Program-made: the position numbers and the translations under genes | Notes under the pieces: model-generated | The model's input: the letters and a program-made list of their open reading frames with translations, nothing else | Database searches by the model: none | Told to the model about the DNA's origin: nothing | Origin: Bifidobacterium scardovii JCM 12489 = DSM 13734 | GTDB taxonomy: Bacteria > Actinomycetota > Actinomycetes > Actinomycetales > Bifidobacteriaceae | NCBI RefSeq assembly: GCF_001042635.1 | Contig: NZ_AP012331.1 | Span: 1,860,001-1,924,000, forward strand | DNA length: 64,000 nucleotides | Direction of reading: 5' to 3' | Part shown: positions 21,430 through 63,740 of the stretch, piece by piece | Layout: every line of letters begins with the position of its first letter | How positions within the stretch are numbered: position 1 is the stretch's first letter

Positions 21430-23061
21430 TCACTCCTTGGTGATCTCGTTGAGGATCGGGTTGCTCTGGAAGTCAAAGTCGACGTTCTTGAGCCCCGGCA
21501 CCGAGACGGCCACCGTGTTCGTGTACCACAGCGGGATCGACGGCAGGTCCTCGAGCAGGTACTCCTCGCCTTCCTGGTAGTACTTGTTCGCCTCCTCGAC
21601 GGACGATGCGGCGGCGGCCGCGCTCATCGCCGCGTCGAAGTCGGGGTTCTTGTAGTCGCTCGAGTTGCCGCCCTTGCCGTCGGCCGCCGACGAGGAGTAC
21701 AGCTGCACCAGATAGTTCTCGGCGGACGGGTAGTCCGGCGCCCAGCCGCCGCGGTACATGCCGCCGAGCTGGCGGTTGTCCATCGCCGTGTAGTATTCCT
21801 TGCTGGTCGGATAGGGGTTGACCTTCACCTCGATGCCGAGCGTGTTGCGCAGGTTGTTGGCGATGGCCTCGATCCAGTCCTTCACGGGCGCATCGGACGG
21901 GTAGTCGATCTCCAGCACGCCGCTCCACGGGCTGATCTGGTCGGCCTCGGCCCACAGGGCCTTGGCCGCGTCGGCGTCGAAACGGATGTTCGACACGTTC
22001 TTCAGATCCTTGCTGTAGCCGGAGATCGTCGGCGCGATGAAGTCGGTGGCCTCGGTCGCGGTGCCGTGCAGGATCTTCTCGATGATCGTCTCGCGATCGA
22101 TGGCCTTGGAGATGGCCTGGCGGCGCAGCCTGCCCTCCTCGTCGTAGGTGATGTGGTTGCTCTTCGGCGGGAACATCATCGCGACGAAGCTCGATCCGGG
22201 CTGGTTGTAGGACTTGACGAGCTTGTTCTTCTGGAACGAGCCGAGCGCCGTGGAGGGCAGGCTGGTCAGGATGTCGAGGTTGCCGGACTGCACGTCGGAG
22301 TACGCGGCCGCCGTGTCGGTGTACATCTTGAAGGTGATGCCGTCGTTCTTGGCCTTGCGCGGCCCGTCGTAATCCGCGTTCCTGACGATCTTGATCCGGC
22401 TGTTGTGCGTCCACTCCGAGAACTTGTACGGGCCGTTGCCCACCGGGTGCTCGGCGTAGCCGTCCGGATCGTCGTAGAAGGATTCGGGCAGCGGGTAGAA
22501 CGCGCAGTATCCGAGCTTGAGCGGAAACACCGAATCGGGCTGGGACATGTGCACGATCAGCGTGTAGTCGTCCTTGACCTCGAGGCCCGACAGCTGGGCG
22601 TCGCCGTCGACGCCGTCCTTCTGCAGATCGTCGTAACCCGCGATGGTGGAGAAGAACGAGGCGCCCAGCTGCGCGTTGGTCACGTTCGCCACATAGCTCC
22701 AGGCGCGGGAGAAGGACTTCGCGGTCACCGGCGTGCCGTCGGTGAACTTCCAGCCCTGGTTGAGGGTGATGGTGAATTCGGTCGAGTCCCCGTTCGCCTC
22801 GATGCTCTTCGCCACCTCGTTGCGCGTGTTGCCGTCGGTGTCGTAGCTCACCAGCCCCGAGTACAGCATGTTGATGATCTGCCCGGCGTTGCCGTCGAGC
22901 GTCTGCCCCGGGGTGAGCGGGTTGGTCGGCTCCTTGCTGCCGACGGTGATGATCTGCCCCTCCTCCGCGGTGGAGCCCTTGCTCCCGCCGCATCCGGCCA
23001 GACCCATGGTCAGCGCGCAGACCGCCGCGACCAGCGTGATGATTCTCTTGGTTCCGCTCAT
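21430..23061 (-). CDS. Peptide ABC transporter substrate-binding lipoprotein, OppA-like
   Basis: Extracytoplasmic solute-binding protein (SBP_bac_5 family), 543 residues, lipid-anchored: signal peptide with lipobox LAGC, then GGSKGSTAEEG. Family features include the GWKFTDGTPVTAKSF segment and NGPYKFSEW. It would deliver oligopeptides to an ABC permease that is not in this window. ATG 23061 follows AAGGAGA. It is last in a minus-strand run of POT permeases and proline peptidases, which suggests peptide uptake as the common theme. It is more distant from the two OppA paralogs at 41-44.6 kb than they are from each other. Confidence 0.92.
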   Translation of the reverse strand: MSGTKRIITLVAAVCALTMGLAGCGGSKGSTAEEGQIITVGSKEPTNPLTPGQTLDGNAGQIINMLYSGLVSYDTDGNTRNEVAKSIEANGDSTEFTITLNQGWKFTDGTPVTAKSFSRAWSYVANVTNAQLGASFFSTIAGYDDLQKDGVDGDAQLSGLEVKDDYTLIVHMSQPDSVFPLKLGYCAFYPLPESFYDDPDGYAEHPVGNGPYKFSEWTHNSRIKIVRNADYDGPRKAKNDGITFKMYTDTAAAYSDVQSGNLDILTSLPSTALGSFQKNKLVKSYNQPGSSFVAMMFPPKSNHITYDEEGRLRRQAISKAIDRETIIEKILHGTATEATDFIAPTISGYSKDLKNVSNIRFDADAAKALWAEADQISPWSGVLEIDYPSDAPVKDWIEAIANNLRNTLGIEVKVNPYPTSKEYYTAMDNRQLGGMYRGGWAPDYPSAENYLVQLYSSSAADGKGGNSSDYKNPDFDAAMSAAAAASSVEEANKYYQEGEEYLLEDLPSIPLWYTNTVAVSVPGLKNVDFDFQSNPILNEITKE

Positions 23062-23297
23062 GCGTTTCTCCTTACGGTGCCATGAAACAGCGTTGCCGGA
23101 TTCATGGTGCCGGCAAGCATCGCAGTGACGTTCGATCATTCCCCTGGATGTTCCGGGGACGAGCGACGGCGTGGTGGAATGCCGCCGTCAGCCGCCCGGA
23201 AGCCGGGACGGGGGTGATTATAGGCGGCCAGTGTTGAGTTATGAGTCAATTATGGTGCGAACGTGTTACGGGGGCATTCCCCGTGGCTGGTTTGGGT

Positions 23298-23527
23298 GGC
23301 TCCCCTCTTTGAGGCTGAGCCGTGAAGCAAGCAGCGGAGCTGGTTGTAGGCGAAGGCGAGGCGACAGCCGAGCAGACAAAGCTGCGGCCGTAAGGCCGTC
23401 CGTAATTGCAGGACGAGCTGGCGACGAAGCCGGCTGAGGGGAGCGAACGGATCGGCTTGATGCCAAGCGTTCAGGGCAACACTCCCCTCAGTCACTTCGT
23501 GACGGCTCCCCTCAGAGAGGGAAGCCG
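23298..23527. repeat. Composite dispersed repeat, long copy
   Basis: Starts GGCTCCCCTCTTTGAGGC and ends with GGCTCCCCTCAGAGAGGGAAGCC. Its first 145 bp are closely similar to the reverse complement of about 40862-41006. Non-coding; lies between the OppA promoter region and the end of the first Xaa-Pro aminopeptidase. Confidence 0.75.
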
Positions 23528-23539
23528 GTGACCGACCGG

Positions 23540-25156
23540 TCAGGCGCAGGCCGCGTCCTGCGCGAGGAAGCTGTCGAAGTAGTGCTCCGGGCCATGGGCC
23601 GCCAGCCACGTCTCGATTTCGTCGGGCGTACGGGCGAAGGTGGTCATCAGCTTGACCTCGCCGCTTTCGGTGACCATGAGGTCGTCCTCGATGCGCACGC
23701 CGATGCCGCGGTACTCCTCGGGCACGAGCAGGTCGGCCGCGTCGAAGTACAGTCCCGGCTCGAGCGTGAACACCATGCCGGGCTTGAACTCGCTGTCGGG
23801 GTAGAACTCGTTGCGCGCGTGGTGGCTGTCGTGGCAGTCGAGGCCCATCATGTGGCCGGTGCCGTGGTACAGCCAGCGGTACTGCTGGTGGCCGTCGGGC
23901 TTCAGCGCCTCCTCGGCGCTGACCGGCAGGATGCCGAGCTTCTCGAGCGAGTGCGCCACCGAGACCATCACCGCGTCGATCATGTCGTGGTAGACGGCGC
24001 CCGGCTTGTTCGCGGCGGCGATCGCCGCGTCGGCCGAATCCAGCACCGCCTGGTAGATCTTGCGCTGCGCCGGCGTGAACTTGCCGTTGACCGGGAAGGT
24101 GCGCGTGATGTCGGCGCCGTACAGCGAATCGAGTTCGATGCCGGCGTCCAGCAGGAACAGGTCGCCGTCCTTGAGCGCATGGTCGTTGGCGTGGTAGTCG
24201 AGGATCGTGGCGCGCGGGCCGGAGGCGGCATTGGTCTCGAAGGAAATGTAGTTGCCCTCGTAGCGGCACGAATGGGTGAAGGTGGCCTCGAGCAGGCGCT
24301 CGCCGCGCTTGACCTGGCGGGCGATCGGCAGGATGTCGGCCACGCGGTCGAAGCCTCGCTGGGTGGCCTCGACGGCCTTCTGGATCTCGGCGACCTCGCG
24401 CGGCGTCTTGACGACGCGGCACTCGTCCTCGCGCTCCTCGAGCGTGGCGTCCAGCGCGCGGTTCGTGTCGGCGTCGCCCAGGCCGCTCTCCTCGCGCACG
24501 CGGTTGACCAGCGCGTCCACGCTCGGGTCGTAGCCGCGCATCAGGCGGATGCGGATGCCGTCGGGGCCGGCGCCTTCGCGCAGCGCGGCCTCCAGCTCGG
24601 TGCGGTCCTTGATCTCCAGGCCGGTCATGGTGTGGAAGTCCGCGGGCAGCGGGCGCGGCCCGACCCAGAACTCGCCGTGCTTGGCATCGGAGAAGAACCG
24701 CGGGTTGGAGCGGTCGATGGCCGGCTCTAGGTAGATCGTCGCATGGTAGCCGGCGGTGCCGTCCGCTTCGAGCACCGGATCGATGACCAGCACCGAATCC
24801 GCCTCGAGGTCGCGGCCGAGGCCGGTCAGATGCGCGTACGCCGTGCCGGTGCGGAACAGGAAGTCGATGTCCCAGGTGCGGTGGCGCAGCGTGCCGGCGG
24901 GGATCACCAGGCGCTCGCCGGGGATCTTGGACACGAGCTCGGCGCGGTGCTTGACCGCGTCGTCCGCGAACGGGCTGCGCTCGTACTGCTTCTTGTTGGG
25001 GTTCTCGCCCCAGTTCGTGAAGATGATGTCCTCGAATCCCTTGCCCTTGAGCGCGAGACTGCCCGAGCCCTTGCCCTTGGCCGGCTCGGTGTCGTTGCCC
25101 GCGGCCAGGGCGTGCAGCGCCGCCAGCGATTCCTCGGAATATGCGTGATCACCCAT
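23540..25156 (-). CDS. pepP: Xaa-Pro aminopeptidase (M24B), copy 1
   Basis: Metallopeptidase removing the N-terminal residue from peptides with Pro in second position; cytoplasmic, 538 residues. The AMP_N domain occupies the N-terminal half; the pita-bread domain has all five metal ligands in context: LDAGIELDSLYGADITRTF (two Asp), GTGHMMGLDCHD (His), LEPGLYF (Glu) and EDDLMV (Glu). ATG 25156 follows AAGGGAA; the open frame reaches through the palindrome upstream but without support. Paralogous to the next gene, suggesting tandem duplication. Residues differing from copy 2 near the substrate pocket could give different peptide preferences. Confidence 0.94.
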   Translation of the reverse strand: MGDHAYSEESLAALHALAAGNDTEPAKGKGSGSLALKGKGFEDIIFTNWGENPNKKQYERSPFADDAVKHRAELVSKIPGERLVIPAGTLRHRTWDIDFLFRTGTAYAHLTGLGRDLEADSVLVIDPVLEADGTAGYHATIYLEPAIDRSNPRFFSDAKHGEFWVGPRPLPADFHTMTGLEIKDRTELEAALREGAGPDGIRIRLMRGYDPSVDALVNRVREESGLGDADTNRALDATLEEREDECRVVKTPREVAEIQKAVEATQRGFDRVADILPIARQVKRGERLLEATFTHSCRYEGNYISFETNAASGPRATILDYHANDHALKDGDLFLLDAGIELDSLYGADITRTFPVNGKFTPAQRKIYQAVLDSADAAIAAANKPGAVYHDMIDAVMVSVAHSLEKLGILPVSAEEALKPDGHQQYRWLYHGTGHMMGLDCHDSHHARNEFYPDSEFKPGMVFTLEPGLYFDAADLLVPEEYRGIGVRIEDDLMVTESGEVKLMTTFARTPDEIETWLAAHGPEHYFDSFLAQDAACA

Positions 25157-25257
25157 AATGATGGTTCCCTTCGATATAGATTGCACATGGATGGATTGAT
25201 GAATTATGTGTCGACGATCCGGACCCGCCCACGGGGTATTCCCGCTCCTGATTGGCA

Positions 25258-25359: not shown

Positions 25360-25366
25360 GGCGGGT

Positions 25367-26989
25367 TCAGTCCTTCGGATCGAAGCCCGTCAGATCGGCG
25401 ATGTAGCGCTCGGGGCCGTGTTCGGCCATCCACGCCTCGATGCCCTCCGGGCTGCGCGGCACGCCGTCGCTCAGGATCACGACCTCGCCGCTGTCGGTGA
25501 CCAGCAGGTCGTCCTCCAGGCGCACGCCGATGCCGCGGTACTCTTCGGGCACGAGCAGGTCGTTGTCGTGGAAGTACAGGCCCGGCTCCATGGTGAAGAC
25601 CATGCCCGGCTTGAGCTCGGCGTCCGGGTAGTACTCGTCGCGGGCGTGCTGGGCGTCATGGCAGTCGAGCCCCAGATGGTGGCCGGTGCCGTGGTACAGC
25701 CAGCGGCAGTGCTGCTCGCCGTCGGGCTTGAGCGATTCGGCGGCGCTGACCGTGAGGATGCCCATGTCCTCGAGCGAGTGCGCGATCGAATCCATGGCGG
25801 CGGCCATGAGGTCGCGGTAGCGGGCGCCCGGCTTGTTGGCCGCGGCGATCGCCGCATCCGAGGCGGCGAGCACCGCTTCGGCGACCCGGCGCTGGGCGGG
25901 CGAGTAATGGCCGCTCACCGGCAGCGTGCGCGTCACGTCGGCGGCGTACAGGTACTGCGATTCGGCGCCGGCGTCGAGCACGACGGCGTCGCCCTCGCTC
26001 ACCGGGTGGTTGTTGATCATGTAGTGCAGGAAGGTGGAGCGCCGCCCCGAGCCGACCACGGTCTCGAAGGAGACGTCATTGGCCTCGTACCGGCACGAGC
26101 CCATGAACACGCTTTCGATGAGGCGCTCACCGCGCCTGACCTTCGGCGCCAGCGAGATCACGTCGGCCACGCGCTCGAAGCCGCGCTCGGTGGCGCGGAT
26201 CGCCTCGCGGATCTGCTCGATCTCCCTGGGGGTCTTGATGATGCGCAGCTCGTCCTCGCGCTCCTCGAGCACCTGGTCGAGCGGCATGTTCGCGTCCGCA
26301 TCGCCCAGACCGGTCTCAAGGCGGATCCTATCGACCGTGGACTCCACCGCCGGGTCGGCGCCGCGGAACACGCGCAGGCGCAGTCCCTTCGGCCCGACCT
26401 GCTCGGCGAGGTCGCCGGCCAGCGAGGCGATGTCGCGCGTCTCGATGCCGGTCATCGTCGTGTAGTCGGCGAGGTCGGGCGCCGGCCCGACCCAGAACTC
26501 GCCGTGCATCGCGTCCGAGTAGAACCGCGGGTTGTCGTGGCCGATGGCCGGGGCCACGTACAGCACGTCGTGATGGCCTACCGTGCCGTCCGCGTTCACG
26601 ACCGGGTTGATGACGAGCACCGGTCCCGGCTCAATGTCGCCACCCAAGCCGGTCAGGTGAGCGAACGGCGTACTGACGCGGAAGTTGTAGGTGACGTCGT
26701 TAGTGCGGAAGCGGATGGCCCCCGCGGGGATCACCAGCCGCTCCCCCGGCAGGCTGGCGGCGAAGTCGTCGCGGTGCTTGGCCGCGTCGTCGGCCAGCGG
26801 GCTGCGCGTCACCTCCTCCTTGGGGCTTTCGCCCCAGTGGTCGAAGATCTCGCTTTTGAATCCCGCGCCGGTGATGCGCAGGCCGCCGGCCCGCTTGCGG
26901 GGCGCCGGCTCGGTCGCGTTGCCGTTGGCCGCGGCCCGCAGCGTTTCGATGCCGTTCGGCGTGGTGCCGCCGTTATCGCATTCCGCCAT
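25367..26989 (-). CDS. Xaa-Pro aminopeptidase (M24B), copy 2
   Basis: Paralog of copy 1 with 540 residues. Metal-ligand contexts are intact: VLDAGAESQYLYAADVTRT, GTGHHLGLDCHD, MEPGLYF and LEDDLLV. Start ATG 26989 follows GAGGAG. Separated from copy 1 by the palindrome and from the upstream metallopeptidase by 108 bp, all on the minus strand. Two such enzymes side by side point to heavy use of proline-containing peptides. Confidence 0.93.
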   Translation of the reverse strand: MAECDNGGTTPNGIETLRAAANGNATEPAPRKRAGGLRITGAGFKSEIFDHWGESPKEEVTRSPLADDAAKHRDDFAASLPGERLVIPAGAIRFRTNDVTYNFRVSTPFAHLTGLGGDIEPGPVLVINPVVNADGTVGHHDVLYVAPAIGHDNPRFYSDAMHGEFWVGPAPDLADYTTMTGIETRDIASLAGDLAEQVGPKGLRLRVFRGADPAVESTVDRIRLETGLGDADANMPLDQVLEEREDELRIIKTPREIEQIREAIRATERGFERVADVISLAPKVRRGERLIESVFMGSCRYEANDVSFETVVGSGRRSTFLHYMINNHPVSEGDAVVLDAGAESQYLYAADVTRTLPVSGHYSPAQRRVAEAVLAASDAAIAAANKPGARYRDLMAAAMDSIAHSLEDMGILTVSAAESLKPDGEQHCRWLYHGTGHHLGLDCHDAQHARDEYYPDAELKPGMVFTMEPGLYFHDNDLLVPEEYRGIGVRLEDDLLVTDSGEVVILSDGVPRSPEGIEAWMAEHGPERYIADLTGFDPKD

Positions 26990-27097
26990 GATGGATGGCT
27001 CCTCTCTGTTGGTGGACGGCCGTGCGATGGGATCGAACCTCACCGCGCAAGCCGATGGATAGCCCGCCCGATGCGGACGAGAACGATGCGCGCGGTG

Positions 27098-28141
27098 CTA
27101 CCCGCGCGGCGTCCCGTCGATGTCGAACAGGTCAAGTCCGCGCTCCCAGGGTGCGGGCAAGTGTGTTTCCGGGTAGATCTCGGCCATGAACTGGTAGGCC
27201 TCGGGATCGTAGCGGCGCAGCTCCTCGCGGGTGTTGACCGGGCCGCGCACCTCCCACGATCCGTCGGGGCTCTCCTCCATCACGTCGAACCAGATGGTGG
27301 TCAGTGTGGCGAAGAACTCCTCGTGATTGCTGATCGCGTAGGTGCCCGGCCACAGCCCGGCCTCCTTGCTGTGCCGGTAGATCTCGCTGAAGCGGCGGTA
27401 GCGCTCGCCGTGGTGGGCGTATTTGAGCCCGATCAGGTGGATGCCGTGGGCGAATTCGTGGGCGAGGATGGACTCGTTGCGGTATTTGGTGGTGACCGGG
27501 CCCTCGAGCACGCGCAGCACGTTGGTCTCGGCGATCGAGGCCGCCGGGTTGCCGTCGCAGGCGCCGTAGCCGGCCACCGGATACGGCGCCACCCGGTAGC
27601 CCATGCGGTGCTCGGGCACGTCGAAGGCGTCCTCGTGCGGGCCGTACACCGACAGGCTCACGCCGAAATTGGTCAGCACCTTGGCTTCCTCGGGCATCTT
27701 GGCGAGCAGCACGTCGACCATCTCGCACGCCTTGTCGCGGGCCTCCTGCGAGGTGTCGTCGCCGGATTTGATGAGGATGCCGCTCTCGCTGCGCTGGAAG
27801 CGCGTGTAGTACGGCTGGTAGTTGGCCCTGAAGGTCCCGTCGGATACCGGCGTGCCGTCGGCACCGGCCAGGGGCGCGTTGAAGCTGACGGTGATGTCGG
27901 CGAAGTCCTTGACGCGCATCGGCCGGATCGGGCTGATCGTGGTGCGCCGGATCTCTTTCTGGTACAGGGTACCGCTCTGCCACTCCATGCTCTCGTCCCA
28001 GACGAACAGGGGCAACGGAGCGCCGCGGAAGTTGAGGTTGTACACGTCAATGCGGTCCGCTTCGACCATGTCGACGGGCCAGGTTATTTCCAAATGGTTC
28101 TCGTCGATCAGAGTGACGGAAACCGGTGCGATACCGCTCAT
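27098..28141 (-). CDS. Zinc metallopeptidase, HEFAH type, possibly proline-specific
   Basis: 347-residue protein without signal peptide or membrane segment. The zinc motif is HEFAHGIH (His228, Glu229, His232), with a probable third ligand in the later NHEEFFA segment (Glu274 or Glu275). HExxH plus a downstream E(E)FFA is the layout of gluzincins such as anthrax-lethal-factor-like and Pro-Pro endopeptidase domains; similarity to those is suggested from the motif only. ATG 28141 follows AAGGAG. The neighbours (two Xaa-Pro aminopeptidases, two peptide permeases) make an intracellular peptidase acting near proline a reasonable guess. Confidence 0.72.
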   Translation of the reverse strand: MSGIAPVSVTLIDENHLEITWPVDMVEADRIDVYNLNFRGAPLPLFVWDESMEWQSGTLYQKEIRRTTISPIRPMRVKDFADITVSFNAPLAGADGTPVSDGTFRANYQPYYTRFQRSESGILIKSGDDTSQEARDKACEMVDVLLAKMPEEAKVLTNFGVSLSVYGPHEDAFDVPEHRMGYRVAPYPVAGYGACDGNPAASIAETNVLRVLEGPVTTKYRNESILAHEFAHGIHLIGLKYAHHGERYRRFSEIYRHSKEAGLWPGTYAISNHEEFFATLTTIWFDVMEESPDGSWEVRGPVNTREELRRYDPEAYQFMAEIYPETHLPAPWERGLDLFDIDGTPRG

Positions 28142-28208
28142 GACGACTCCTTCGTGCGTCAGCCGGCTGCTGGCTATTCCAGCAGATACTGCTTTTTTAT
28201 TGTAAAGT

Positions 28209-28308: not shown

Positions 28309-29883
28309 TCACTCGGCCATGATCGCGTTCTGCATCTTGTTGCGGAACAGGAAGATCAGGACGGAGACGGCCAGCTCGAGGATCGCGATGATCCAGAACA
28401 GCGGCAGCTGGGTGTCCAGGGTCTGGAGCTTGCCGAAGATGATCAGCGAGATCGCGGTGCCGATGGCGGCCGACAGCGTGAAGCCGGTCTGCAGCTGGGT
28501 CTCGTAGGACTTCGGGGAGGCCGCGGCGACCAGGGAGGTGGCGGCGACGCCGTAGGGGAAGCCGCCGAAGTTGCCGACGACGTAGTAGATGAGCATCCAG
28601 ATCACCGAGTACTTGGCGGTGCCGGGGAACAGCACGACGGTCGGCACGATGAGCAGCAGGTTGGAGATGCCGGAGAAGGCGAAGCCGAACCACAGGCGGT
28701 CCACGGACTTCCACTTGTCACCCAGCTTGGTGGCCCACAGCCAGCTGTAGAAGATGCCGGCGAGCAGTGCCACGACGGAGATGAGGGTGTTGAAGGAGCC
28801 CGGGGCGATCTCGAAGCCGAAGAAGTTGCGGTTGATGCGCTGGTCGAGGAACATGAGCAGCGTGGTGCCCTGCAGCTGGTAGTCGATGCCGATGACGATC
28901 TGCATGAGGATGATCGGCGAGACGGCGCCCAGACGGCGGCGCTCGACGCCCTTGATGCGCTTGGAGCTCCAAATGATCACGAAGAACACGATGGCGACGA
29001 TGAAGGTGCAGGAGCTGACGGTGCTGGCCAGCGTGCCGATCGAGGCCTTGCCGGTGCCCACGGCGATGGCGATGGCAACGGCGATCAGCACCAGGGCGAT
29101 CAGCGCGCCGAAGCCGTACTTCTTCTTTTCGGCGGCGCTGAGCGGGCGGGACGGCTTGGAGCCGAGGGAGCCGAAGAACGCCTTGCCGGGCAGGCCGATG
29201 CACGCGGCGTACAGGAAGGCGGCGATGGCGCCGATCAGGAAGCCGTAGTGGTAGTTGATCAGGCCGAGCTGCGCGGCGATCACCGGGGTGATGAAGCCGG
29301 CGATGCTGTTCGCGATGTTGTGCATCGCGTACGCGCCGTCGCGGCGGCTGTCCTTGCGGTGGAACAGCAGGCCGGTCAGCGAGTAGTTCGAGGCGCCCAT
29401 GATCGGCAGGTTCATCAGGATCATGCCGACGACCGCGAACACGCGGCCCTGGTCGATGGAGAAGGCCGGGATGGCGAGGATGGCGCAGGACAGGCCCTTG
29501 GCGATGTTGCCGATGACCAGCGCCTTGCGGGCGCCGAACACGCGGTCGGCCAGCCAGGAGCCGATGATGCCGAACATCGAGTTGATCGCGCCGACCGAGG
29601 CAATGAGCTGCGCGGCCTCGCCCTGGGTGAAGCCAAGGCCCTTGGTCCACGGCGAGTACAAGTAGTAGATGAGCACGGCGCCGTACGCGCCCCAGCAGAT
29701 CGAGTTGAAGAAGTTGCCGGCGGCCAGCGAGGACAGGCCCTTGGGGTAGCCGAGGAACGAATGGTCGTCGCGGATCTTCTTCAGTTCCTGCTCTTCGGCG
29801 GTGGTGATCTTCTCGCCGTCTTCATCCAGCACCAGCGACGTGTCGTCGTTGACCGTGTCGGGTGATGATTGGGTATTGGACAT
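28309..29883 (-). CDS. Proton-dependent oligopeptide transporter (POT/PTR2), copy 1
   Basis: Inner-membrane di/tripeptide:proton symporter of the DtpT group, 524 residues, 12-14 helices. After a cytoplasmic tail comes FLGYPKGLSSLAAGNFFNSICWGAYGAVLIYYLY, a typical first helix. The usual ExxER motif of POT helix 1 is not obvious, so this is a divergent subgroup. ATG 29883 follows AAGGAGG. A tandem paralog lies upstream; the last 102 bp of the two are identical. The substrate might be modified peptides, given the glycosidase neighbours (inference). Confidence 0.85.
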   Translation of the reverse strand: MSNTQSSPDTVNDDTSLVLDEDGEKITTAEEQELKKIRDDHSFLGYPKGLSSLAAGNFFNSICWGAYGAVLIYYLYSPWTKGLGFTQGEAAQLIASVGAINSMFGIIGSWLADRVFGARKALVIGNIAKGLSCAILAIPAFSIDQGRVFAVVGMILMNLPIMGASNYSLTGLLFHRKDSRRDGAYAMHNIANSIAGFITPVIAAQLGLINYHYGFLIGAIAAFLYAACIGLPGKAFFGSLGSKPSRPLSAAEKKKYGFGALIALVLIAVAIAIAVGTGKASIGTLASTVSSCTFIVAIVFFVIIWSSKRIKGVERRRLGAVSPIILMQIVIGIDYQLQGTTLLMFLDQRINRNFFGFEIAPGSFNTLISVVALLAGIFYSWLWATKLGDKWKSVDRLWFGFAFSGISNLLLIVPTVVLFPGTAKYSVIWMLIYYVVGNFGGFPYGVAATSLVAAASPKSYETQLQTGFTLSAAIGTAISLIIFGKLQTLDTQLPLFWIIAILELAVSVLIFLFRNKMQNAIMAE

Positions 29884-30535
29884 TGCTTACTCCTCCTTGA
29901 GAGTGACTTAAGTAAGTCTGTCTTTTGTTCCGCCCCGAATGAGGCGTTACTTTGAAGGTAATCCGCGGATAAGTGAACATAGGGTGAAGTCTTGTTGTAA
30001 AAAGTGGACAATTATTCGAGCATCCACACGAAATATCCACGAAATAGTGGAGAAATGTCAGGGAAACGGAGCGGAAACACCCAATTGTTCTCACCGACAA
30101 CCGGCCGAAAACCCAGAATATGGCGGGAAACAGCAAGTCAGCAGTGCCCGAAGTGCACGCCCCCGCCGGATGGATAGCCCGGTGGGCTATCCATAGCAGT
30201 GTGCGAAGCGCACGTCGCATATAGCGTCGGGGGGCTGGCGGCGCAGCCGACTGGGGGTGTCCGGAAACCGATATGCCAGCCTCCCGACCACCCTCAGTCT
30301 CGCTTCGCGAGCCAGCTCCCGCCAGCGGGAGCGTGCCGAATCCGGCGTAACGGAATAATAAAAAAAGGCCCCTCCCGAAGGAGGGACCATGTCATGCTCG
30401 ATATCGAAGACGGACACCCGGCATTCCGTGCCTCCGGCTCCCCTCTCCGAGGGGAGCCAGGTATGGAGCATACCTACCACGAGCCAACCATCCGACAGCT
30501 CCCCTCGGAGAGGGGAGCCACAGGCACGGGATGGA
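29884..30535. repeat. Intergenic region with several hairpin repeats
   Basis: No gene. From left: promoter area of POT copy 1 with AAAAAGTGGACA at 29999-30010, also found upstream of copy 2; an 11-bp perfect hairpin at 30170-30194 (ATGGATAGCCC) flanked by the near-repeats GCAGTGCCCGAAGTGCACG and GCAGTGTGCGAAGCGCACG; a dispersed repeat copy at about 30218-30345; the terminator at 30358-30388; and a further CTCCCCTC-type copy at about 30436-30522. Confidence 0.65.
30358..30388 (-). terminator. Terminator of POT permease copy 2
   Basis: On the minus strand GGTCCCTCC, a TTCG tetraloop, GGAGGGGCC and then a run of T. Canonical rho-independent terminator downstream of the gene ending at 30536. Confidence 0.85.
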
Positions 30536-32125
30536 TCACTCGGCCATGATCGCGTTCTGCATCTTGTTGCGGAACAGGAAGATCAGGACGGAGACGGCCA
30601 GCTCGAGGATCGCGATGATCCAGAACAGCGGCAGCTGGGATTCCAGCGTCTGCAGCTGACCGAAGATGATCAGCGAGATCGCGGTGCCGATGGCGGCCGA
30701 CAGCGTGAAGCCGGTCTGCAGCTGCGCCTCGTAGGACTTCGGGGCGGCGGCGGCCACCATCGAGGTGGCGGCGACGCCGTACGGGAAGCCGCCGAAGTTG
30801 CCGACCAGGTAGTAGATCAGCAGCCAGATCACCGAGTACTTCGCGGTGCCGGGGAACAGCACGGCGGTCGGCACGATGAGCAGCAGGTTGGAGATGGCGC
30901 CGGCGCCGAAGCCGAACCACAGGCGGTCCACGGACTTCCACTTGGCACCGAACTTGGTGGCCCACAGCCAGCTGTAGAAGATGCCGGACAGCAGCCCGAT
31001 CACGGCGATGATCGTGTTGAACGAACCCGGGGCGATCTCGAAGCCGAAGAAGTTGCGGTTGATGCGCTGGTCGAGGAACATGAGCAGCGTGGTGCCCTGC
31101 ATCGCGTAGTCCACGCCGATGACGATCTGCATGACGATCAGCGGGGAGACGGCGGCGAGGCGGCGGCGCTCGACGCCCTGGATGCGCTTCGAACGCCAGA
31201 TGATGGCGAAGAACGCGATGGCGATCACGAAGGTGAAGGAGCTCACGGTGCTGGCGAAGGTGCCGATCGTGGCCTTGCCCGAACCCACGGCGATGGCGAT
31301 CGCGATCGCGAGGACGGCGACGACAGCCAAGGCCCCGAGGCCGTACTTCTTCTTCTCGGCGGCGCTGAGCGGATGGGACGGCTTGGATCCGAACGAGCCG
31401 AAGATGCGCTTGCCCGGCAGGCCGATGCACGCGGCGATCAGGAAGGCGGCGATGGCGCCGATCAGGAAGCCGTAGTGGTAGTTGATCTGGCCGAGCTGCG
31501 CGGCGATCACCGGCGTGATGAAGCCGGCGATGTTGTTCGCGATGGTGAACATGGCGAAGGCGCCGTCGCGGCGGCTGTCCTTGCGGTCGAACAGCAGGCC
31601 GGTCAGCGCGGCGCTGGAGGCGCCCATGATCGGCAGGTTCATCAGGATCATGCCGACGACCGCGAACACGCGGCCCTGCTCAAGGGAGAAGGCCGGCAGG
31701 GCGAGCAGACCGCAGGACACGCCCTTGGCGATGTTGCCGATGATCATGGCCTTGCGGGCGCCGAAGATGCGGTCGGCCAGCCAGGATCCGACGATGGAGA
31801 ACACCGAGTTGATCGCGCCGACGGCGGCGACCAGCTGCGCGGCCTCGCCCTGGGTGAAGCCCAGGCCCTGGGTCCACGGCTTGTACAGATAGTAGATGAG
31901 CACGGCGCCATAGGCACCCCAGCAGATCGAGTTGAAGAAGTTGCACGCCGTCAGGGGCGCGATGCCCATCGGGTAGCCGAGGAACGAACGGTCGGCGCGC
32001 AGGCGCTTCAGTTCCTTCTCCTCCGCCGTGCCCTCGCGGGCCCCGTCCCCGTCGCGCACCTGGGTCCCGTCCGTGCCGCTCTGGCCGTCTTGATCTTGCG
32101 GATCCTGCGGACTTTGCTGAGACAT
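30536..32125 (-). CDS. Proton-dependent oligopeptide transporter (POT/PTR2), copy 2
   Basis: 529-residue paralog of copy 1 with the same helices; it differs mainly in its charged N-terminal tail, rich in Gln, Asp and Gly. ATG 32125 follows AAGGAGG. It is divergent from the alpha-galactosidase gene at 32506, so the two probably share a control region. Duplicate POT permeases next to glycosidases and not beside a peptide operon alone are unusual. Confidence 0.85.
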   Translation of the reverse strand: MSQQSPQDPQDQDGQSGTDGTQVRDGDGAREGTAEEKELKRLRADRSFLGYPMGIAPLTACNFFNSICWGAYGAVLIYYLYKPWTQGLGFTQGEAAQLVAAVGAINSVFSIVGSWLADRIFGARKAMIIGNIAKGVSCGLLALPAFSLEQGRVFAVVGMILMNLPIMGASSAALTGLLFDRKDSRRDGAFAMFTIANNIAGFITPVIAAQLGQINYHYGFLIGAIAAFLIAACIGLPGKRIFGSFGSKPSHPLSAAEKKKYGLGALAVVAVLAIAIAIAVGSGKATIGTFASTVSSFTFVIAIAFFAIIWRSKRIQGVERRRLAAVSPLIVMQIVIGVDYAMQGTTLLMFLDQRINRNFFGFEIAPGSFNTIIAVIGLLSGIFYSWLWATKFGAKWKSVDRLWFGFGAGAISNLLLIVPTAVLFPGTAKYSVIWLLIYYLVGNFGGFPYGVAATSMVAAAAPKSYEAQLQTGFTLSAAIGTAISLIIFGQLQTLESQLPLFWIIAILELAVSVLIFLFRNKMQNAIMAE

Positions 32126-48060: not shown

Positions 48061-48179
48061 AGAAAACCACACCTCCAATCATCAAACATGAATTACTCCA
48101 GTCCAACAATCAGGGTGCAGTTCACTGTGGGGGGAGCCGGCAATCATCAACGAATCATCGCCGTGTCATGCCGCCCGCC

Positions 48180-51970: not shown

Positions 51971-52318
51971 TGCCGCCCGCCTTCCCTTCACGGTAAGTCG
52001 TCCGATATACACCAGCATATTGCGGGGCGGGGGTTCCGCGTGCCGCGCAACCGTTCGATTCGGTGGAGAAAACTACGGTATCGCGGCGGGTGCGGCTCGC
52101 CCTTCGCCCCATGCCGTTTCCAGCATATCGGGCCGATGTGTCGGATCGTGTTGCGTTCGGCCGGCGCGCGCCCGGAGTGCGCCCGGAGTGCGCATGCCGC
52201 GACCCCGAAGGAAAAGTTCACTTTTTCCGAGAATCAGGAGAGTGTGCAGTTCGGGGCCATCACTTACCATGAATTCAGCGGTGTTACCATGTCCATCGAG
52301 GAAATCGGGGGGGTGTTC
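51971..52318. promoter_or_regulatory. Divergent control region, GH36-2 and AraC-2
   Basis: Contains GGAAAAGTTCACTTTTTCC (52210-52228), a near-palindrome and a candidate operator for the AraC protein encoded to the right. Otherwise nothing recognised. Confidence 0.5.
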
Positions 52319-53182
52319 ATGTCAACGATTGTCGCGGATCTGCCGGAGGCCGACATCTCGTTCGAATCGGCCGGCCAGTTCATCGGCACTCCCGGGTGGA
52401 TCCACGAGCATCGCATACTGGACAGCTTCGAGCTGATCTTCGTCAAGCGCGGCATCCTGCCGCTGCGCGTCGGCGCCGACGACCTGCGCATCGGCGGCTG
52501 CGACATCGCGATCATCCCGCCGCAGACCCCGCATGAGGGCACCGGCTACCTGACCGACACCCTGGAGTTCTTCTGGGTGCATTTCCGCATCCGCCACTGG
52601 CGGCGGTCCGGCGCCACGGACGGCACGCCCTCGGCCTACGGGGACCGCACGCTGATGCTGCCGCTGTCCAGCTCGCAGATGGACACCGACCGGCTGACGA
52701 TCATGTTCAACCAGCTGCTCGACATCTACCAGATGAGCTATCCCGAGCCGAGCTCGTACTGCGACTACTTCACCACCTGCCTGCTCTACGAGGTGGTCTC
52801 GCTCAACAACCGCGCGGCCACGGCCGACAACGACCAGCGCGAGCGCCATGTGCTGCAGAAGGTGCACGAGTGGATCCGCATCAACGCCTTCGAGGACATT
52901 TCGGTCAACCAGATCGCCGACCAGTTCAACTACTCCCCCAGCTACCTGTCGACCATCTACAAGCAGCATTTCGGCATCAGCATCACCACGCAGATCTCGA
53001 AGATCCGCATCGAGCGCGCCGAGGAGCTGCTGCTGTCCACGTCGATGAGCGTGCAGCAGGTGGCCGAGGCCAGCGGCTACAACGACGCGAAGTACTTCAT
53101 GCGCGTCTTCAAACAGCACACCGGCCTGACCCCCACCCGCTACCGCACCAGCTTCACCATGCGCCACTACAACAACGCGTGA
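52319..53182 (+). CDS. AraC-family transcriptional regulator, copy 2
   Basis: 287 residues from ATG 52319 (preceded by a GGGGGGG run); an ATG at 52289 in the same frame would add ten. N-terminal cupin-like sensor (DSFELIFVKRGILPLRVG, IPPQTPHEGTGY), C-terminal double HTH (ISVNQIADQFNYSPSYLSTIY and VQQVAEASGYNDAKYFMRVF). Divergent from GH36-2 and so its probable regulator; the inducer may be galactose, arabinose or a glycopeptide. Confidence 0.88.
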   Translation: MSTIVADLPEADISFESAGQFIGTPGWIHEHRILDSFELIFVKRGILPLRVGADDLRIGGCDIAIIPPQTPHEGTGYLTDTLEFFWVHFRIRHWRRSGATDGTPSAYGDRTLMLPLSSSQMDTDRLTIMFNQLLDIYQMSYPEPSSYCDYFTTCLLYEVVSLNNRAATADNDQRERHVLQKVHEWIRINAFEDISVNQIADQFNYSPSYLSTIYKQHFGISITTQISKIRIERAEELLLSTSMSVQQVAEASGYNDAKYFMRVFKQHTGLTPTRYRTSFTMRHYNNA

Positions 53183-55525: not shown

Positions 55526-57793
55526 TCAGCGGGCGGTGACCTCGAACAGGCGCGACTGGTAGTCGCCCTGGCGGATCCACGTGGTCCACGGGCCGAAGCC
55601 CGAGTCGGAGACGTCGAATCCGTGGCTCATCAGCTCGTCGCCGTAGAACGCCTCGCCGTCGACCTGCGGCATGCGGTAGACGGTGTCGCGGATCTCGTAC
55701 TCGCGCTCGGGGTCGAGGCCCTCGAGGCGCAGCGAGCGATAGCCCTCGTTGACCGGCTGGTGGGCGCGGTAGTAGCCGACCAGCGCGCGGGAGCGGTCGG
55801 CGGAGACGACCATCCACGCGGTTTCGGCGCCCTCCTGCAGCCCCACCGGGTTGGCCCCGTACGGGCTGACCAGGCGGTAGAAGGTGCCGTGGGCGATCAG
55901 GTCGTAGTGCTCCTTGAAGAACGCGATCTGGCCGCGGATCTCCTCCTGCTCCTCCGGCGGGATCTTGTTGACGTCGAGCTCATAGCCGAAGGTGCCGAAG
56001 TAGGCCACGTCCGCGCGCGTCTTGAGCGGCGTGACGCGGAACACCTGGTGGTTCGGCACGGCGGAGACGTGGCTGCCCATGCTCGAGATCGGGTAGCCGA
56101 ACGAGGTGCCGTACTGGATCTTGAGGCGCTCGATGGCGTCGGAGTCGTCGGAGATCCATCCCTGGGGCGCGTAGTAGAGCATGCCGGCGTCGAAGCGGCC
56201 GCCGCCCGAGGCGCACGATTCGAACAGCACCTTCGGGAACTTCGAGGTCAGGCGCTCGTACAGGGAGTACACGCCGAGGATCTGGCGGTGGAACACCTCG
56301 CCCTGGAACTCGGCCGGGCGGCCCTGCGAGTACACGTCGGTCATCGAGCGGTTCATATCCCACTTGACGTAGCTGACGAGCCCGGTGCCGAGGATCTTCT
56401 CCATCTGCTCGGCGATGTAGTCGACGACCTCGGGCTTGGTGAAGTCCAGCTCGAACTGGTTGCGTCCGTGCAGCGGCGTGCGGTCAGGCACGCGGATCAT
56501 CCAGTCGGGGTGCGCCTCGTACAGTTTGGAGTCCTTGCTGATCATCTCCGGCTCGAACCACAGGCCGAACTGCATGCCGATACCGGTGATGCGCTTGGCC
56601 AGCCCCTCGACGCCGTTGGGCAGCTTCTTCGGGTCGGCGAACCAGTCGCCGAGCGAGCTCTCGTCGTTGTCGCGGTGGCCGAACCAGCCGTCGTCGAGCA
56701 CGAACAGGTCGACGCCCAGCTCGTGGGCCTTGGACGCGATCGAGAAGACCTTGTCCTCGTCGAAATTCATGTAGGTGCTCTCCCAGCTGTTGATGAGCAC
56801 CGGGCGCGGGCGGTCGCGCCAGTAGCCGCGGGCCAGCCGCGTGCGATACAGCTCGTGGTAGGCCTGGCTCATGTGATTCAGGCCGTCGGCGCTGTAGACG
56901 ATCACGGCCTCGGGCGTCTGGAACGAGGCGCCGGGGCCGAGCCGCCACGCGAAGCCCTCCGGGTGGATGCCCATCATCACGCGGGTGACGTGGTAGTTGT
57001 CGACCTCGACCTGGCCGAGGAAGTTGCCACTGTACACCAGGCTCACGCCGAAGCACTCGCCGGAGTCCTCGGTGGTTTCGGGCCGCTTCAGGATCAGGAA
57101 CGGGTTGAACTGGTGCGAGCTGTGGCCGCGCAGGCTGTAGATGGACTGCACGCCGGTCTTGAGCTCGCGCTCCTGGAGGTGGCGCTCGCGGCCCCACGCG
57201 CCGGTGAAGTCGAGCATGCGCCAGCGGGCGTCCGGCAGGTCGATGTTCGCGCTCATCGCGGCGTCGATCACCAGGTTCCGCTCGCCGCGGTTCACGAAGC
57301 GCGCGTTGCGGGCCAGCACCGGGCGGTCGGCGTACAGCGTGTACGACAGGTCGAGCTCGGCGCCGGTCAGCTTGTCGGCCAGCGTGATCGTCAGCGTCTC
57401 GGCCTCGGCGTCATCCTCGACGTAGGTGGCCGGCAGGTTCTCGAGCTTCGGCTTGCCCGGCGTCACGGCGTGCGACACGTACGCGAAGTCGGCGTACCGG
57501 CTGCCGTCGGGGTTCACGATCGTCGCGGCCATGTTACGCATGTCGCCGTTGCCGGTGACCGGGTACTCCTGCTTGGTGTCCTCCAGCGAGAAGCTCTGGT
57601 CGCCCTCGTAGACGCACGGGTCCATGTCGCGGCGCTCGTTGACCTGCATGTGGGTGAAGTTCTCGCGGTCCTTCAGCGGCGCGCCGAAGTACAGCTGGCC
57701 GATCTGGCCGTTGCGCAGCACGTCGATGATGTAGGAGAAATAGCGGTTGTAAATGTGGAAGACCTTGGTCTTCTCATGGTACACGATGGGCAC
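55526..57793 (-). CDS. Alpha-galactosidase, GH36, copy 3
   Basis: 755 residues from GTG 57793, placed by AAGGGA 7 nt upstream; the frame extends 20 codons further without support. No signal peptide. Active site intact: Asp479 in YVKWDMNRS and Asp549 in WISDDSDAIER, with ESCASGGGRFD for sugar binding. It differs from copy 1 in the N-terminal domain (HEKTKVFHIYNRYFSYIIDV) and near-substrate loops, suggesting a different aglycone. First gene of a probable operon with POT copy 3. Confidence 0.94.
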   Translation of the reverse strand: MPIVYHEKTKVFHIYNRYFSYIIDVLRNGQIGQLYFGAPLKDRENFTHMQVNERRDMDPCVYEGDQSFSLEDTKQEYPVTGNGDMRNMAATIVNPDGSRYADFAYVSHAVTPGKPKLENLPATYVEDDAEAETLTITLADKLTGAELDLSYTLYADRPVLARNARFVNRGERNLVIDAAMSANIDLPDARWRMLDFTGAWGRERHLQERELKTGVQSIYSLRGHSSHQFNPFLILKRPETTEDSGECFGVSLVYSGNFLGQVEVDNYHVTRVMMGIHPEGFAWRLGPGASFQTPEAVIVYSADGLNHMSQAYHELYRTRLARGYWRDRPRPVLINSWESTYMNFDEDKVFSIASKAHELGVDLFVLDDGWFGHRDNDESSLGDWFADPKKLPNGVEGLAKRITGIGMQFGLWFEPEMISKDSKLYEAHPDWMIRVPDRTPLHGRNQFELDFTKPEVVDYIAEQMEKILGTGLVSYVKWDMNRSMTDVYSQGRPAEFQGEVFHRQILGVYSLYERLTSKFPKVLFESCASGGGRFDAGMLYYAPQGWISDDSDAIERLKIQYGTSFGYPISSMGSHVSAVPNHQVFRVTPLKTRADVAYFGTFGYELDVNKIPPEEQEEIRGQIAFFKEHYDLIAHGTFYRLVSPYGANPVGLQEGAETAWMVVSADRSRALVGYYRAHQPVNEGYRSLRLEGLDPEREYEIRDTVYRMPQVDGEAFYGDELMSHGFDVSDSGFGPWTTWIRQGDYQSRLFEVTAR

Positions 57794-58099: not shown

Positions 58100-60712
<2,613 letters not shown>

Positions 60713-60721
60713 GTCCCTGCT

Positions 60722-60900: not shown

Positions 60901-60936
60901 GTAAGAGCCGATTCCGTCTCGCGGCCGCCTATCCCC

Positions 60937-61734: not shown

Positions 61735-61838
61735 AGTGGCTCCTTGTCGCGGGGATGTTCCGACGTCGAGTCTAGGCCATGGCGGCCCGCCGCCGCCAGC
61801 CGGTCTCACGAGCACGCCGAGCAGGGCCGTGGTGCGGC

Positions 61839-63740
61839 TCACTGGTGGGTCGGGGTGAGGGTGCTCTTGATCGCGGCCTCGCCGAAATCGCCGGCCGGGC
61901 CGGACACGGACGATACGGGCGCGGCGTCCGGCGCCGTGTCGAGATACACCGAGTACGTCTCGTCGTCGATCGTGTAGATGGGGACCAGCTGCAGCGTGAG
62001 GTCGTGCGGGGCATGCGGCGCGTGCAGGTCGAACACCGAGCCGTACCGCGCGTCGGGGCGCTTGGCGGCCGCCGCACTCAGTTCGCTTTCGGTGATCGGC
62101 CCGATGGCCGCCTGATCGCCGAGTGCGGCGAGCAGCACGTTGCCGTAGCGGATGGCCTGCCGGTCCGCGTCGCCGATGAGCGGCACGAGCGTGAGGTCGG
62201 CGCGCAGGTCGAGCGTAATGCGGTCGCCGTCCCGGAGGTCGGCGGTGAACAGGTACAGTCCGCCGCTCACCCGCGTGGCGGTGTCGGCGGCCTGAGCCCG
62301 GCCGCCGTCCGCGCGCTCCACGGCGATCCCGCTGATCCGGTCGGCGGCGAGCGCGAGGGTGAGCCGCTTCGGCGCGTCCAGCGACACGTCGATCGTGGCG
62401 GACAGGTCGTTCGGCCAGTCGGTCGTCAGCGCGAGCCGGACGCCCTCCTGCGCCCAGTCCAGGCGTGAGGGGATCAGCTCGGCGAGCAGGATCGTCGGCG
62501 CGGTTCCGTCCTCGTCGGCGCCGCGGAACCAGATGCCGCGTTGCATCTGCGATCCGGCTTCCATGCCGGTGCCGGTGCAGCACCAGAAATCGAGGTAGGG
62601 CCGGCCGAACTTCTTGCGCACGCCGACGCCCATCGGCTGGTGGTACAGCGACTGGCCGGTTTTCTCGTCGATGCAGTTGACCACCGCGCTGAACTTGAGC
62701 CGTTCGATCTCGGCGAGATAGTCCGGCTCCCCGGTGATCTCGAACAGGGCCGTGGCGATGGCCATGAGGTTGTGGGCGCAGCACGATTCGCTTTCGCCTC
62801 CGGTGAGCGCCTCGCTCAGGTCGCCGTACGGGCCCCAGTGTTCGGCGCGCTCGGAGATCGCCTTCGGGTCGGGGTGGGTCGCCTTCGAGCTGGTGTTGCC
62901 GTTGGCGAACATGCGGCCGGCGATGAAGCGGTAGCCGTTGGTCGCCGCGGTCAGGTAGGCGATGTCGCCGGTGATCCGGTACCGGTGCAGGGCGGCGATG
63001 ATCATCGGCAGGTGGGTGTTGGCGTGCAGGTCCTCGAGCACGTCCTCGCCGCGCGAGAGCGCGCCGGTGAAGTAGTCGCGGTCGAAGAGCTTCGCGGTGG
63101 CCAGGATGGACCCGTCGCCGCTCAGGTCGTAGAGCGTGTACAGGGCGTCGCCGATGCCGCCGAACTCGTTGGTCGGGTCCACCTTGGTGGCGCGCAGCAC
63201 GCCGTCGGTCTTCCACGCCGACAGCTTCTCGAAGCGCCGGCCGATGTAGTGCCCGAGCCCCAGCGCCAGATCCAGCGCCTGGCGGTTGCCCACGTAGCGG
63301 TAGGCGTCGATGAGGCCCTGCATGATCTTGTGCAGCGTGTAGTAGGGCACCTCGACGCCGTGGTTCTCCCACAGTTCGAGCTGGTCGAGCACCTCGGAGG
63401 GGAAGGAGCTCAGATAGCCGTCGTCGCGCGCGCACTGGCCCATGATCGCCACGATGCGGTCGGCCTTGTCCTTGAAGGCCGGGTCGCGGTCGCCGGCGTA
63501 GTATTTGGACACGGCCGACAGGTAGTGGCCGACGCAGTGGCCGCGGATGCCGGCCTGCTCGCCTTCCCAGCCGCCCAGCGGCTCGGCAGTGGAGGGTATC
63601 CCCGCGTTGAGGCGGAAGGTGTGCATGAGCCGGTCGACGTCGAATTCCAGCAGGAAGCGGCGCGCCGCGTCCGCCCGCCGCCGGAACACGCCGCCGGTGA
63701 CGCTCACCTGGTCCAAGCCGAATGGCTGATAGCTGTTCAT
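61839..63740 (-). CDS. GH127-type beta-L-arabinofuranosidase, copy 2
   Basis: 633 residues, no signal peptide; lacks the Ig-like region of copy 1. Begins MNSYQPFGLDQVSVTGGVF and has the DUF1680 barrel motifs (EQAGIRGHCVGHYLSAVSKYY, VPYYTLHKIMQGLIDAYRYVG, HANTHLPMII). The zinc and catalytic set is present: Glu318 and Cys320 in ESCCAHNLM, Cys387-Cys388 in WCCTGTGMEAGS. ATG 63740 follows AAGGAG. Its different length and loops suggest a different linkage or chain length from copy 1. Confidence 0.9.
   Translation of the reverse strand: MNSYQPFGLDQVSVTGGVFRRRADAARRFLLEFDVDRLMHTFRLNAGIPSTAEPLGGWEGEQAGIRGHCVGHYLSAVSKYYAGDRDPAFKDKADRIVAIMGQCARDDGYLSSFPSEVLDQLELWENHGVEVPYYTLHKIMQGLIDAYRYVGNRQALDLALGLGHYIGRRFEKLSAWKTDGVLRATKVDPTNEFGGIGDALYTLYDLSGDGSILATAKLFDRDYFTGALSRGEDVLEDLHANTHLPMIIAALHRYRITGDIAYLTAATNGYRFIAGRMFANGNTSSKATHPDPKAISERAEHWGPYGDLSEALTGGESESCCAHNLMAIATALFEITGEPDYLAEIERLKFSAVVNCIDEKTGQSLYHQPMGVGVRKKFGRPYLDFWCCTGTGMEAGSQMQRGIWFRGADEDGTAPTILLAELIPSRLDWAQEGVRLALTTDWPNDLSATIDVSLDAPKRLTLALAADRISGIAVERADGGRAQAADTATRVSGGLYLFTADLRDGDRITLDLRADLTLVPLIGDADRQAIRYGNVLLAALGDQAAIGPITESELSAAAAKRPDARYGSVFDLHAPHAPHDLTLQLVPIYTIDDETYSVYLDTAPDAAPVSSVSGPAGDFGEAAIKSTLTPTHQ

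What the first reader, a model, noticed from the sequence alone, without database searches (positions are those of the whole stretch)
21430..63740. Candidate intracellular system for hydroxyproline/serine-rich plant glycopeptides (extensin type)
Seen: three GH36 proteins and two GH127-type enzymes without signal peptides, mixed with three POT permeases, three OppA-type lipoproteins, two Xaa-Pro aminopeptidases, a PepX-like hydrolase, a HEFAH metallopeptidase, pepN, L-serine dehydratase and proC; no sugar transporter was recognised. Known: extensins carry alpha-galactose on Ser and beta-L-arabinofuranose chains on hydroxyproline, and GH127 HypBA1 of B. longum acts on Hyp-linked beta-L-arabinofuranosides. 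Inference: short glycopeptides are imported whole, stripped by GH36 and GH127, and cut by proline-specific peptidases. Missing: a recognised hydroxyproline catabolic enzyme and any secreted enzyme to make the peptides.
Basis: partly seen in the sequence, partly recalled or inferred. Interest (0 to 1): 0.85.

Follow-up and report, generated by a model that had tools for sequence, protein, structure and literature searches.

The report
Intracellular plant glycopeptide scavenging gene cluster
A gut Bifidobacterium carries a gene cluster that looks built to take up small sugar-decorated fragments of plant cell-wall proteins and strip and cut them inside the cell, and relatives of its key enzyme in other bacteria sit beside genes for eating hydroxyproline, the amino acid those sugars hang on.

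Summary
The genes are there as described, and the inference gains support from outside the window. GH127_1 belongs to a mainly cytoplasmic clade. Near its relatives lie hydroxyproline-breakdown genes in 16 of 80 loci (0 of 40 loci of other PF07944 genes from the same genomes) and peptide genes in 43 of 80 (2 of 40). In four Clostridia loci it shares a gene run with HypD, its activase, ProC and a peptide ABC importer; in Paenibacillus it follows genes matching the oxidative hydroxyproline pathway. Paenibacillus HW567 holds POT, GH36, metallopeptidase, AraC, GH127-type and M24 genes side by side. The HEFAH protein is predicted to fold like Pro-Pro endopeptidases. Corrections: neither GH127-type enzyme is HypBA1-like, and a real HypBA1 lies elsewhere in the genome; GH36_2 lacks the nucleophile; the POT proteins lack the ExxER motif; proC is a core gene. 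No HypD-type or proline-racemase-family gene beyond one PFL-like protein was found in this genome. Extensin against arabinogalactan-protein is undecided. Function is inferred throughout; nothing was assayed.

The parts
21430..23061 (-). OppA1, peptide-binding lipoprotein (SBP_bac_5)
   Evidence: Pfam 248 bits; lipobox LAGC
23540..25156 (-). M24a, Xaa-Pro aminopeptidase-like
   Evidence: M24 159 bits + AMP_N; NCBIfam below cut-off
25367..26992 (-). M24b, Xaa-Pro aminopeptidase-like
   Evidence: M24 159 bits + AMP_N
27098..28141 (-). PPEP-like (M34-type) HEFAH metallopeptidase, cytoplasmic, with N-terminal Ig-like domain
28309..29883 (-). POT1 permease, NxxNS in place of ExxER
   Evidence: PTR2 53.7 bits; motif
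30536..32125 (-). POT2 permease, 81% identical to POT1
32506..34767 (+). GH36_1, catalytic Asp kept
   Evidence: Melibiase 467 bits; KWDMNR
34901..37216 (+). GH127_1, cytoplasmic GH127/GH146-type enzyme with aBig domain; key enzyme
   Evidence: PF07944 294 bits; E480, E498, C500, C565, C566 invariant in 10 orthologues; neighbourhood
37351..40758 (+). DUF5695 protein, polysaccharide-lyase-like fold
41025..42674 (-). OppA2 lipoprotein
   Evidence: 229 bits; lipobox
42949..44574 (+). OppA3 lipoprotein
   Evidence: 231 bits; lipobox
44648..46456 (-). PepX-like S15 hydrolase
   Evidence: S15 173 bits; NCBIfam Xaa-Pro dipeptidyl-peptidase 507 bits, cut-off 642; CocE/NonD 137, cut-off 66
48180..49637 (-). 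L-serine dehydratase
   Evidence: SDH_alpha 307 bits
49715..51970 (-). GH36_2, nucleophile Asp replaced by Asn; probably inactive
   Evidence: Melibiase 443 bits; KWNMNR in 3 species
52280..53182 (+). AraC-type regulator (start uncertain)
   Evidence: HTH_18 82 bits; 40% and 37% identical to AraC of L049 and L055
53864..55396 (-). POT3 permease, NxxNG
   Evidence: PTR2 128 bits; motif
55526..57793 (-). GH36_3, catalytic Asp kept; clade linked to POT/M24
   Evidence: Melibiase 530 bits
58094..60712 (+). PepN aminopeptidase
   Evidence: M1 189 bits
60937..61731 (-). ProC, core gene, probably only a neighbour
   Evidence: present in 111 of 112 genomes
61839..63740 (-). GH127_2, second GH146-like enzyme, role unassigned
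   Evidence: PF07944 257 bits

Best explanation
The locus is an intracellular pathway for small plant hydroxyproline-rich glycoprotein fragments. Inferred order: short peptides or amino acids carrying Hyp-O-beta-L-arabinofuranose and alpha-galactose on Ser enter through altered POT permeases and the OppA lipoproteins; GH36_1 and GH36_3 remove alpha-galactose; GH127_1 removes beta-L-arabinofuranose from Hyp; the PPEP-like endopeptidase cuts the bared Pro/Hyp runs and M24, PepX and PepN finish them; arabinose, galactose and serine are fermented. Computed here: gene identities, lack of signal-peptide-like starts, catalytic motifs, the PPEP fold, and the recurrent neighbourhood (POT, GH36, PPEP-like, AraC, GH127_1, M24) in distant phyla. 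Strongly suggested: GH127_1 acts on Hyp-linked arabinose. Inferred only: import of whole glycopeptides, the order of steps, an extensin-type substrate.
Against: This genome shows one PFL-like protein, not examined further, and no Pro-racemase-family match. The POT proteins lack ExxER. Two of 15 Bifidobacterium GH127_1 loci (B. vespertilionis, B. leontopitheci) have no peptide gene within 10 kb, and 33 of 81 tree rows have neither label. Taken singly, HypD (5 of 80 against 0 of 40, p 0.17), M34L (4 of 80 against 0, p 0.3) and GH36 (5 of 80 against 2 of 40) are not significantly enriched. The paired test of Hyp against peptide labels on the tree was not significant (median p 1). The M24 proteins of L049, L055 and L067 are only 26-31% identical to the window's; of the Firmicutes M24 proteins run through Pfam, three of three have another N-terminal domain. 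No secreted enzyme that makes the peptides was looked for or found in this genome.
Confidence: 0.6

Rival explanations
1. The carriers import Hyp-O-arabinosides as glycosylated amino acids (or dipeptides), not longer glycopeptides; GH127_1 frees Hyp from them and the peptidases serve other peptides.
For: The POT subfamily has lost the residues of ordinary peptide binding and proton coupling. In seven of the eight bee-type or other POT-bearing Bifidobacterium loci found (L038-L040, L042, L043, L045, L069) the HMM scan shows POT but no M24, M34L or SBP5 near GH127_1.
Against: Peptide ABC genes and M24 accompany GH127_1 in the HypD and Paenibacillus loci, and the PPEP-like endopeptidase in four Firmicutes loci.
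Confidence: 0.2
2. The substrate is arabinogalactan-protein or gum rather than extensin: short glycopeptides with AGP side-chain remnants are taken in and trimmed.
Against: DUF5695 is not specific to this clade (5 of 80 against 4 of 40 loci); Hyp runs suited to a Pro-Pro endopeptidase are an extensin feature.
Confidence: 0.3
3. Chance or hotspot: ordinary oligosaccharide genes and peptide genes sit side by side in a variable region beside proC.
For: proC is core and variable genes gather beside it; proC-SDH-PepX occurs without GH127_1; an IS3-type transposase lies inside.
Against: The same gene kinds surround GH127_1 relatives in Firmicutes loci far from any shared position; nine other proC loci show none of these genes.
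Confidence: 0.1

Closest known systems
B. longum beta-arabino-oligosaccharide system (HypAA, HypBA2, BauABC importer, HypBA1)
   Same: Bifidobacterium; plant Hyp-linked beta-L-arabinofuranose; an intracellular PF07944 enzyme (PMC7263609 and PMC5928203, passages)
   Different: There the chain is cut outside and arabinobiose enters by a sugar ABC importer; here no sugar importer was found in the locus, the enzyme is of another clade, and peptide carriers and peptidases take their place
GH146 beta-L-arabinofuranosidases (BT0349, Bll3HypBA1)
   Same: Nearest solved relatives of GH127_1 and GH127_2; Glu and Cys motif aligned
   Different: Bll3HypBA1 has a signal peptide and a transmembrane region (PMC10850190, passages); GH127_1 looks cytoplasmic and has an aBig domain
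HypD / P5C reductase hydroxyproline pathway of gut Clostridia
   Same: HypD, activase and ProC lie beside GH127_1 relatives in L064, L068, L071, L072
   Different: In the two HypD papers looked at, 'plant' has no occurrence in the main text (PMC9044972 names collagen); no HypD was identified in the window's genome, which has one PFL-like protein
Pro-Pro endopeptidases PPEP-1, -2, -3 (MEROPS M34)
   Same: Fold, and HExxH with Tyr and Glu seven apart (PPEP-2 residues from PMC9147577, passage)
   Different: No signal-peptide-like start and an extra N-terminal Ig-like domain
POT/PTR2 di-/tripeptide:H+ symporters
   Same: Family match and near whole-length alignment to 4ikx
   Different: ExxER changed to NxxN[SG]; the TM7 Glu not kept

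Membership tests
HypBA1-type beta-arabino-oligosaccharide system | GH127 enzyme of the HypBA1 kind in the cluster | tested here: not met
   GH127_1: 25 bits to HypBA1 against 219 to 5opj; GH127_2: HypBA1 not among its four matches
HypBA1-type beta-arabino-oligosaccharide system | sugar ABC importer in the cluster | tested here: not met
   none among the 29 ORFs scanned
HypBA1-type beta-arabino-oligosaccharide system | extracellular GH121 HypBA2 | not tested
   genome not searched for GH121
GH146 | nearest characterised relatives are GH146 | tested here: met
   5opj and 8k7x/8k7y are the best matches; that they are GH146 is from PMC10850190 and recall
GH146 | acid/base Glu and Zn-bound Cys pair | tested here: met
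   E480, E498, C500, C565, C566 invariant in 10 orthologues and aligned by eye to 8k7y; residue roles partly recalled
GH146 | beta-L-arabinofuranosidase activity | not testable with these tools
   needs an enzyme assay
POT peptide:H+ symporter | PTR2 family match | tested here: met
   POT1 53.7, POT3 128 bits; POT2 only MFS_1
POT peptide:H+ symporter | ExxER motif on TM1 | tested here: not met
   NxxNS/NxxNG in the window; near relatives: E1 is N in 75, E2 is N in 79, R is S in 77 of 79
M34 Pro-Pro endopeptidase | fold | tested here: met
M34 Pro-Pro endopeptidase | HExxH with Tyr and Glu seven apart | tested here: met
   H228, E229, H232, Y268, E275 invariant in 64 sequences
M34 Pro-Pro endopeptidase | cleaves Pro-Pro bonds | not testable with these tools
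   needs a peptide assay
GH36 alpha-galactosidase | catalytic Asp in KWDMNR (role recalled) | tested here: met
   GH36_1 and GH36_3 keep it
GH36 alpha-galactosidase (GH36_2) | catalytic Asp in KWDMNR (role recalled) | tested here: not met
   KWNMNR in window, B. myosotis and B. ramosum
Hydroxyproline catabolism in this genome | HypD or a Hyp epimerase | tested here: inconclusive
   no Pro_racemase match; one PFL-like protein at 3.4e-180, not compared with the HypD model

The most novel reading that the evidence does not exclude
A horizontally shared cytoplasmic module (altered POT carrier, GH36, PPEP-like endopeptidase, AraC, a new beta-L-arabinofuranosidase clade, M24 peptidase) imports and dismantles plant Hyp-O-arabinosylated and Ser-galactosylated glycopeptides whole; the NxxN POT subfamily would be a glycoconjugate carrier, and plant cell-wall glycoproteins, not only collagen, would feed HypD and the epimerase pathway in gut and soil bacteria.
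Probability: 0.45. Interest if true: 0.85.

Novelty: new variant of a known kind. Interest (0 to 1): 0.72.

Why it matters
Use of plant hydroxyproline-rich glycoproteins by Bifidobacterium is described as stripping of sugar outside the cell followed by sugar uptake. A route that takes in the glycopeptide and works inside the cell would be a different strategy, would give a function to an uncharacterised POT subfamily and an uncharacterised metallopeptidase family, and would link plant cell-wall proteins to hydroxyproline fermentation in the gut. It offers named, expressible proteins for a direct test.

Tried and rejected
Rejected or weakened: proC and serine dehydratase as evidence (proC is core; proC-SDH-PepX occurs without GH127_1 in two genomes). 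HypBA1 identity of the two GH127-type enzymes. DUF5695 as a specific member: 5 of 80 loci against 4 of 40 controls. GH36 as generally enriched: 5 of 80 against 2 of 40. The independent-pairs test of Hyp against peptide genes was not significant. PDB sequence searches with the metallopeptidase (no match) and DUF5695 (one chance match) gave nothing of use; the profile search with the metallopeptidase gave two insignificant matches. Rfam and tRNA scans of the window were empty.

Limits of the control: its 40 loci are the 40 best-scoring PF07944 matches outside the GH127_1 loci, and come from 20 of the 26 genomes searched; three matches on or beside GH127_1 loci were left out and weaker ones were not fetched. 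Mean lengths are alike (19.6 and 19.9 kb); every test locus has at least 534 bits to GH127_1, while five controls have 239-287 and the rest at most 72 or none. The HMMs were built from the test loci, which favours the test set. The 80 test loci are the best 80 of 484 and are related to each other. Fisher p values ignore ancestry. Of about 26 other GH36 matches, 8 were fetched; two of these 8 have an SBP5 match near by. NCBIfam was run on 2 HypD proteins of 5 loci and 1 activase. The Paenibacillus epimerase-like, aldehyde-dehydrogenase-like and DHDPS-like proteins score below the matching NCBIfam cut-offs; the pathway reading rests on the set of Pfam families and on recalled knowledge of the pathway. 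The tree is the quick method with SH-aLRT only. The column used for the TM4 Lys is poorly aligned and was not used.

Not in print: (open-access library; listings, with passages of ten papers) showed no paper that describes this module; that is not proof of absence. Nearest thing seen: Latescibacteria predicted to use GH127 on extensins, with general peptide importers (PMC4454575, passages).
Full report
What is in the window. The window is C1:1860001-1924000 of a 3.16 Mb single-contig genome of a Bifidobacterium; its nearest named relatives at this locus are B. myosotis and B. ramosum. Pfam on 29 chosen ORFs confirms every protein class of the finding; the three OppA proteins carry lipoboxes, and the GH36, GH127-type and peptidase proteins have no signal-peptide-like start. 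Between them lie a DUF5695 protein and an AraC regulator that may belong to the picture, and an IS3-type transposase that probably does not.

Inside the genus. Of 112 Bifidobacterium genomes, 10 have a GH127_1 orthologue, 4 have POT1-type permeases, 3 have the cytoplasmic metallopeptidase and 3 more only distant relatives. The GH127_1 orthologues of B. simiiventris, B. miconis, B. aerophilum and B. hapali each stand among some of OppA, M24, PepX and ProC, in differing order. PepX orthologues of at least 60% identity occur in 14 genomes, 9 of them among the 10 with GH127_1; GH36_3 orthologues of at least 69% occur in 7, all among the 10 (p values ignore ancestry). All 7 GH36_3 orthologues lie by a POT or an M24 gene, while 8 other GH36 loci that I fetched have neither, although two of the 8 have an SBP5 match. 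proC is core, nine other proC loci show none of these neighbours, and two genomes without GH127_1 have proC-SDH-PepX, so proC and serine dehydratase carry little weight.

Outside the genus. A profile of the ten orthologues found 484 relatives in species genomes; the best 80 loci, 15 of them Bifidobacterium, were studied. Clustering of their ORFs showed an M24 peptidase in 25 loci, POT, OppA and Dpp genes, and two unrelated hydroxyproline routes. In L064, L068, L071 and L072 the order is HypD activase, HypD, a small gene on the other strand, ProC, two small genes, GH127_1, OppA, DppB, DppC and two ATPases; HypD scores 1516 and 1521 bits in the two tested, cut-off 1100. HypD and activase are also in L098. 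In Paenibacillus loci such as L060 the order is M24, DAO, two proline-racemase-family proteins, a DHDPS-family protein, an aldehyde dehydrogenase, a 2Fe-2S protein, an FAD protein, then GH127_1, the gene set of the oxidative hydroxyproline pathway as I recall it; some members score below NCBIfam cut-offs.

Control. Forty loci of other PF07944 genes, from 20 of 26 genomes that hold GH127_1 relatives, were scored with the same HMMs: HypD or proline-racemase family 0 of 40 against 16 of 80; M24 0 of 40 against 26 of 80; POT 0 of 40 against 13 of 80; any peptide gene 2 of 40 against 43 of 80; first sugar ABC permease 20 of 40 against 23 of 80. Taken singly, HypD (5 of 80), M34L (4 of 80), GH36 (5 of 80 against 2 of 40) and DUF5695 (5 of 80 against 4 of 40) do not reach significance. 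Test and control loci are of like length and well apart in similarity to GH127_1. On a tree of 81 proteins the hydroxyproline label needs 7 changes; a paired test of hydroxyproline against peptide labels was not significant. 80 of 81 proteins have no signal-peptide-like start.

A shared module. Paenibacillus HW567 (L049) has POT, GH36, metallopeptidase, AraC, GH127_1 and M24 side by side; identities to the window are 44% (POT1), 57% (GH36_3), 43%, 40%, 49% and 31% (M24b; other N-terminal domain). Enterococcus phoeniculicola, Hungatella and Clostridium Marseille-P2415 hold parts of it; the Hungatella POT is 60% identical to POT3 and the Clostridium GH36 59% to GH36_3. The metallopeptidase orthologues in L049, L055, L062 and L067 score 273-305 bits. 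Eleven longest-contig lengths are shared between the metallopeptidase and near-POT homologue lists, against 0.14 expected after jitter.

Reading. The best account is intracellular dismantling of imported plant hydroxyproline-rich glycopeptides. Extensin carries alpha-galactose on serine and arabinofuranose on hydroxyproline (PMC5371791 passages), which fits GH36 plus GH127_1 plus a Pro-Pro endopeptidase and serine dehydratase. Weak points: the carrier's substrate is unknown, no hydroxyproline route was identified in this genome, and arabinogalactan-protein fragments or simple Hyp-arabinosides fit nearly as well. The known B. longum route works outside the cell and imports arabinobiose.

Noticed in passing
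window 49715-51970: GH36_2 has Asn at the nucleophile position and changed acid/base surroundings in the window, B. myosotis and B. ramosum: a conserved, probably inactive GH36, perhaps a binding protein or sensor.
   Followed up: partly
window 28309-32125 and 53864-55396: A POT subfamily with NxxN[SG] in place of ExxER, seen in Bifidobacterium, Paenibacillus, Clostridium and others.
   Followed up: partly
window 37351-40758: DUF5695 protein predicted to fold like polysaccharide lyase BACCELL_00875; also near 4 of 40 control PF07944 genes.
   Followed up: partly
window 46691-48078: IS3-type transposase pair between PepX and serine dehydratase.
   Followed up: no
L057:7302-9971, also L054, L070, L081: A protein with laminin-G domains and a sub-threshold M10 matrixin match next to GH127_1 relatives in Paenibacillus/Bacillus: a candidate protease that frees the peptides.
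   Followed up: no
L104:11573-13228 and five further loci: A DUF885 protein (one tested) near GH127_1 relatives in Oscillospiraceae and Defluviitaleaceae loci.
   Followed up: no
L027, L028, L029: Secreted-looking relatives of the PPEP-like peptidase with hydrophobic C-terminal tails in B. aerophilum and B. leontopitheci; in L027 beside GH36_3 and POT.
   Followed up: partly
window 61839-63740: GH127_2, a second and distant GH146-like enzyme beside proC, has no assigned role.
   Followed up: no
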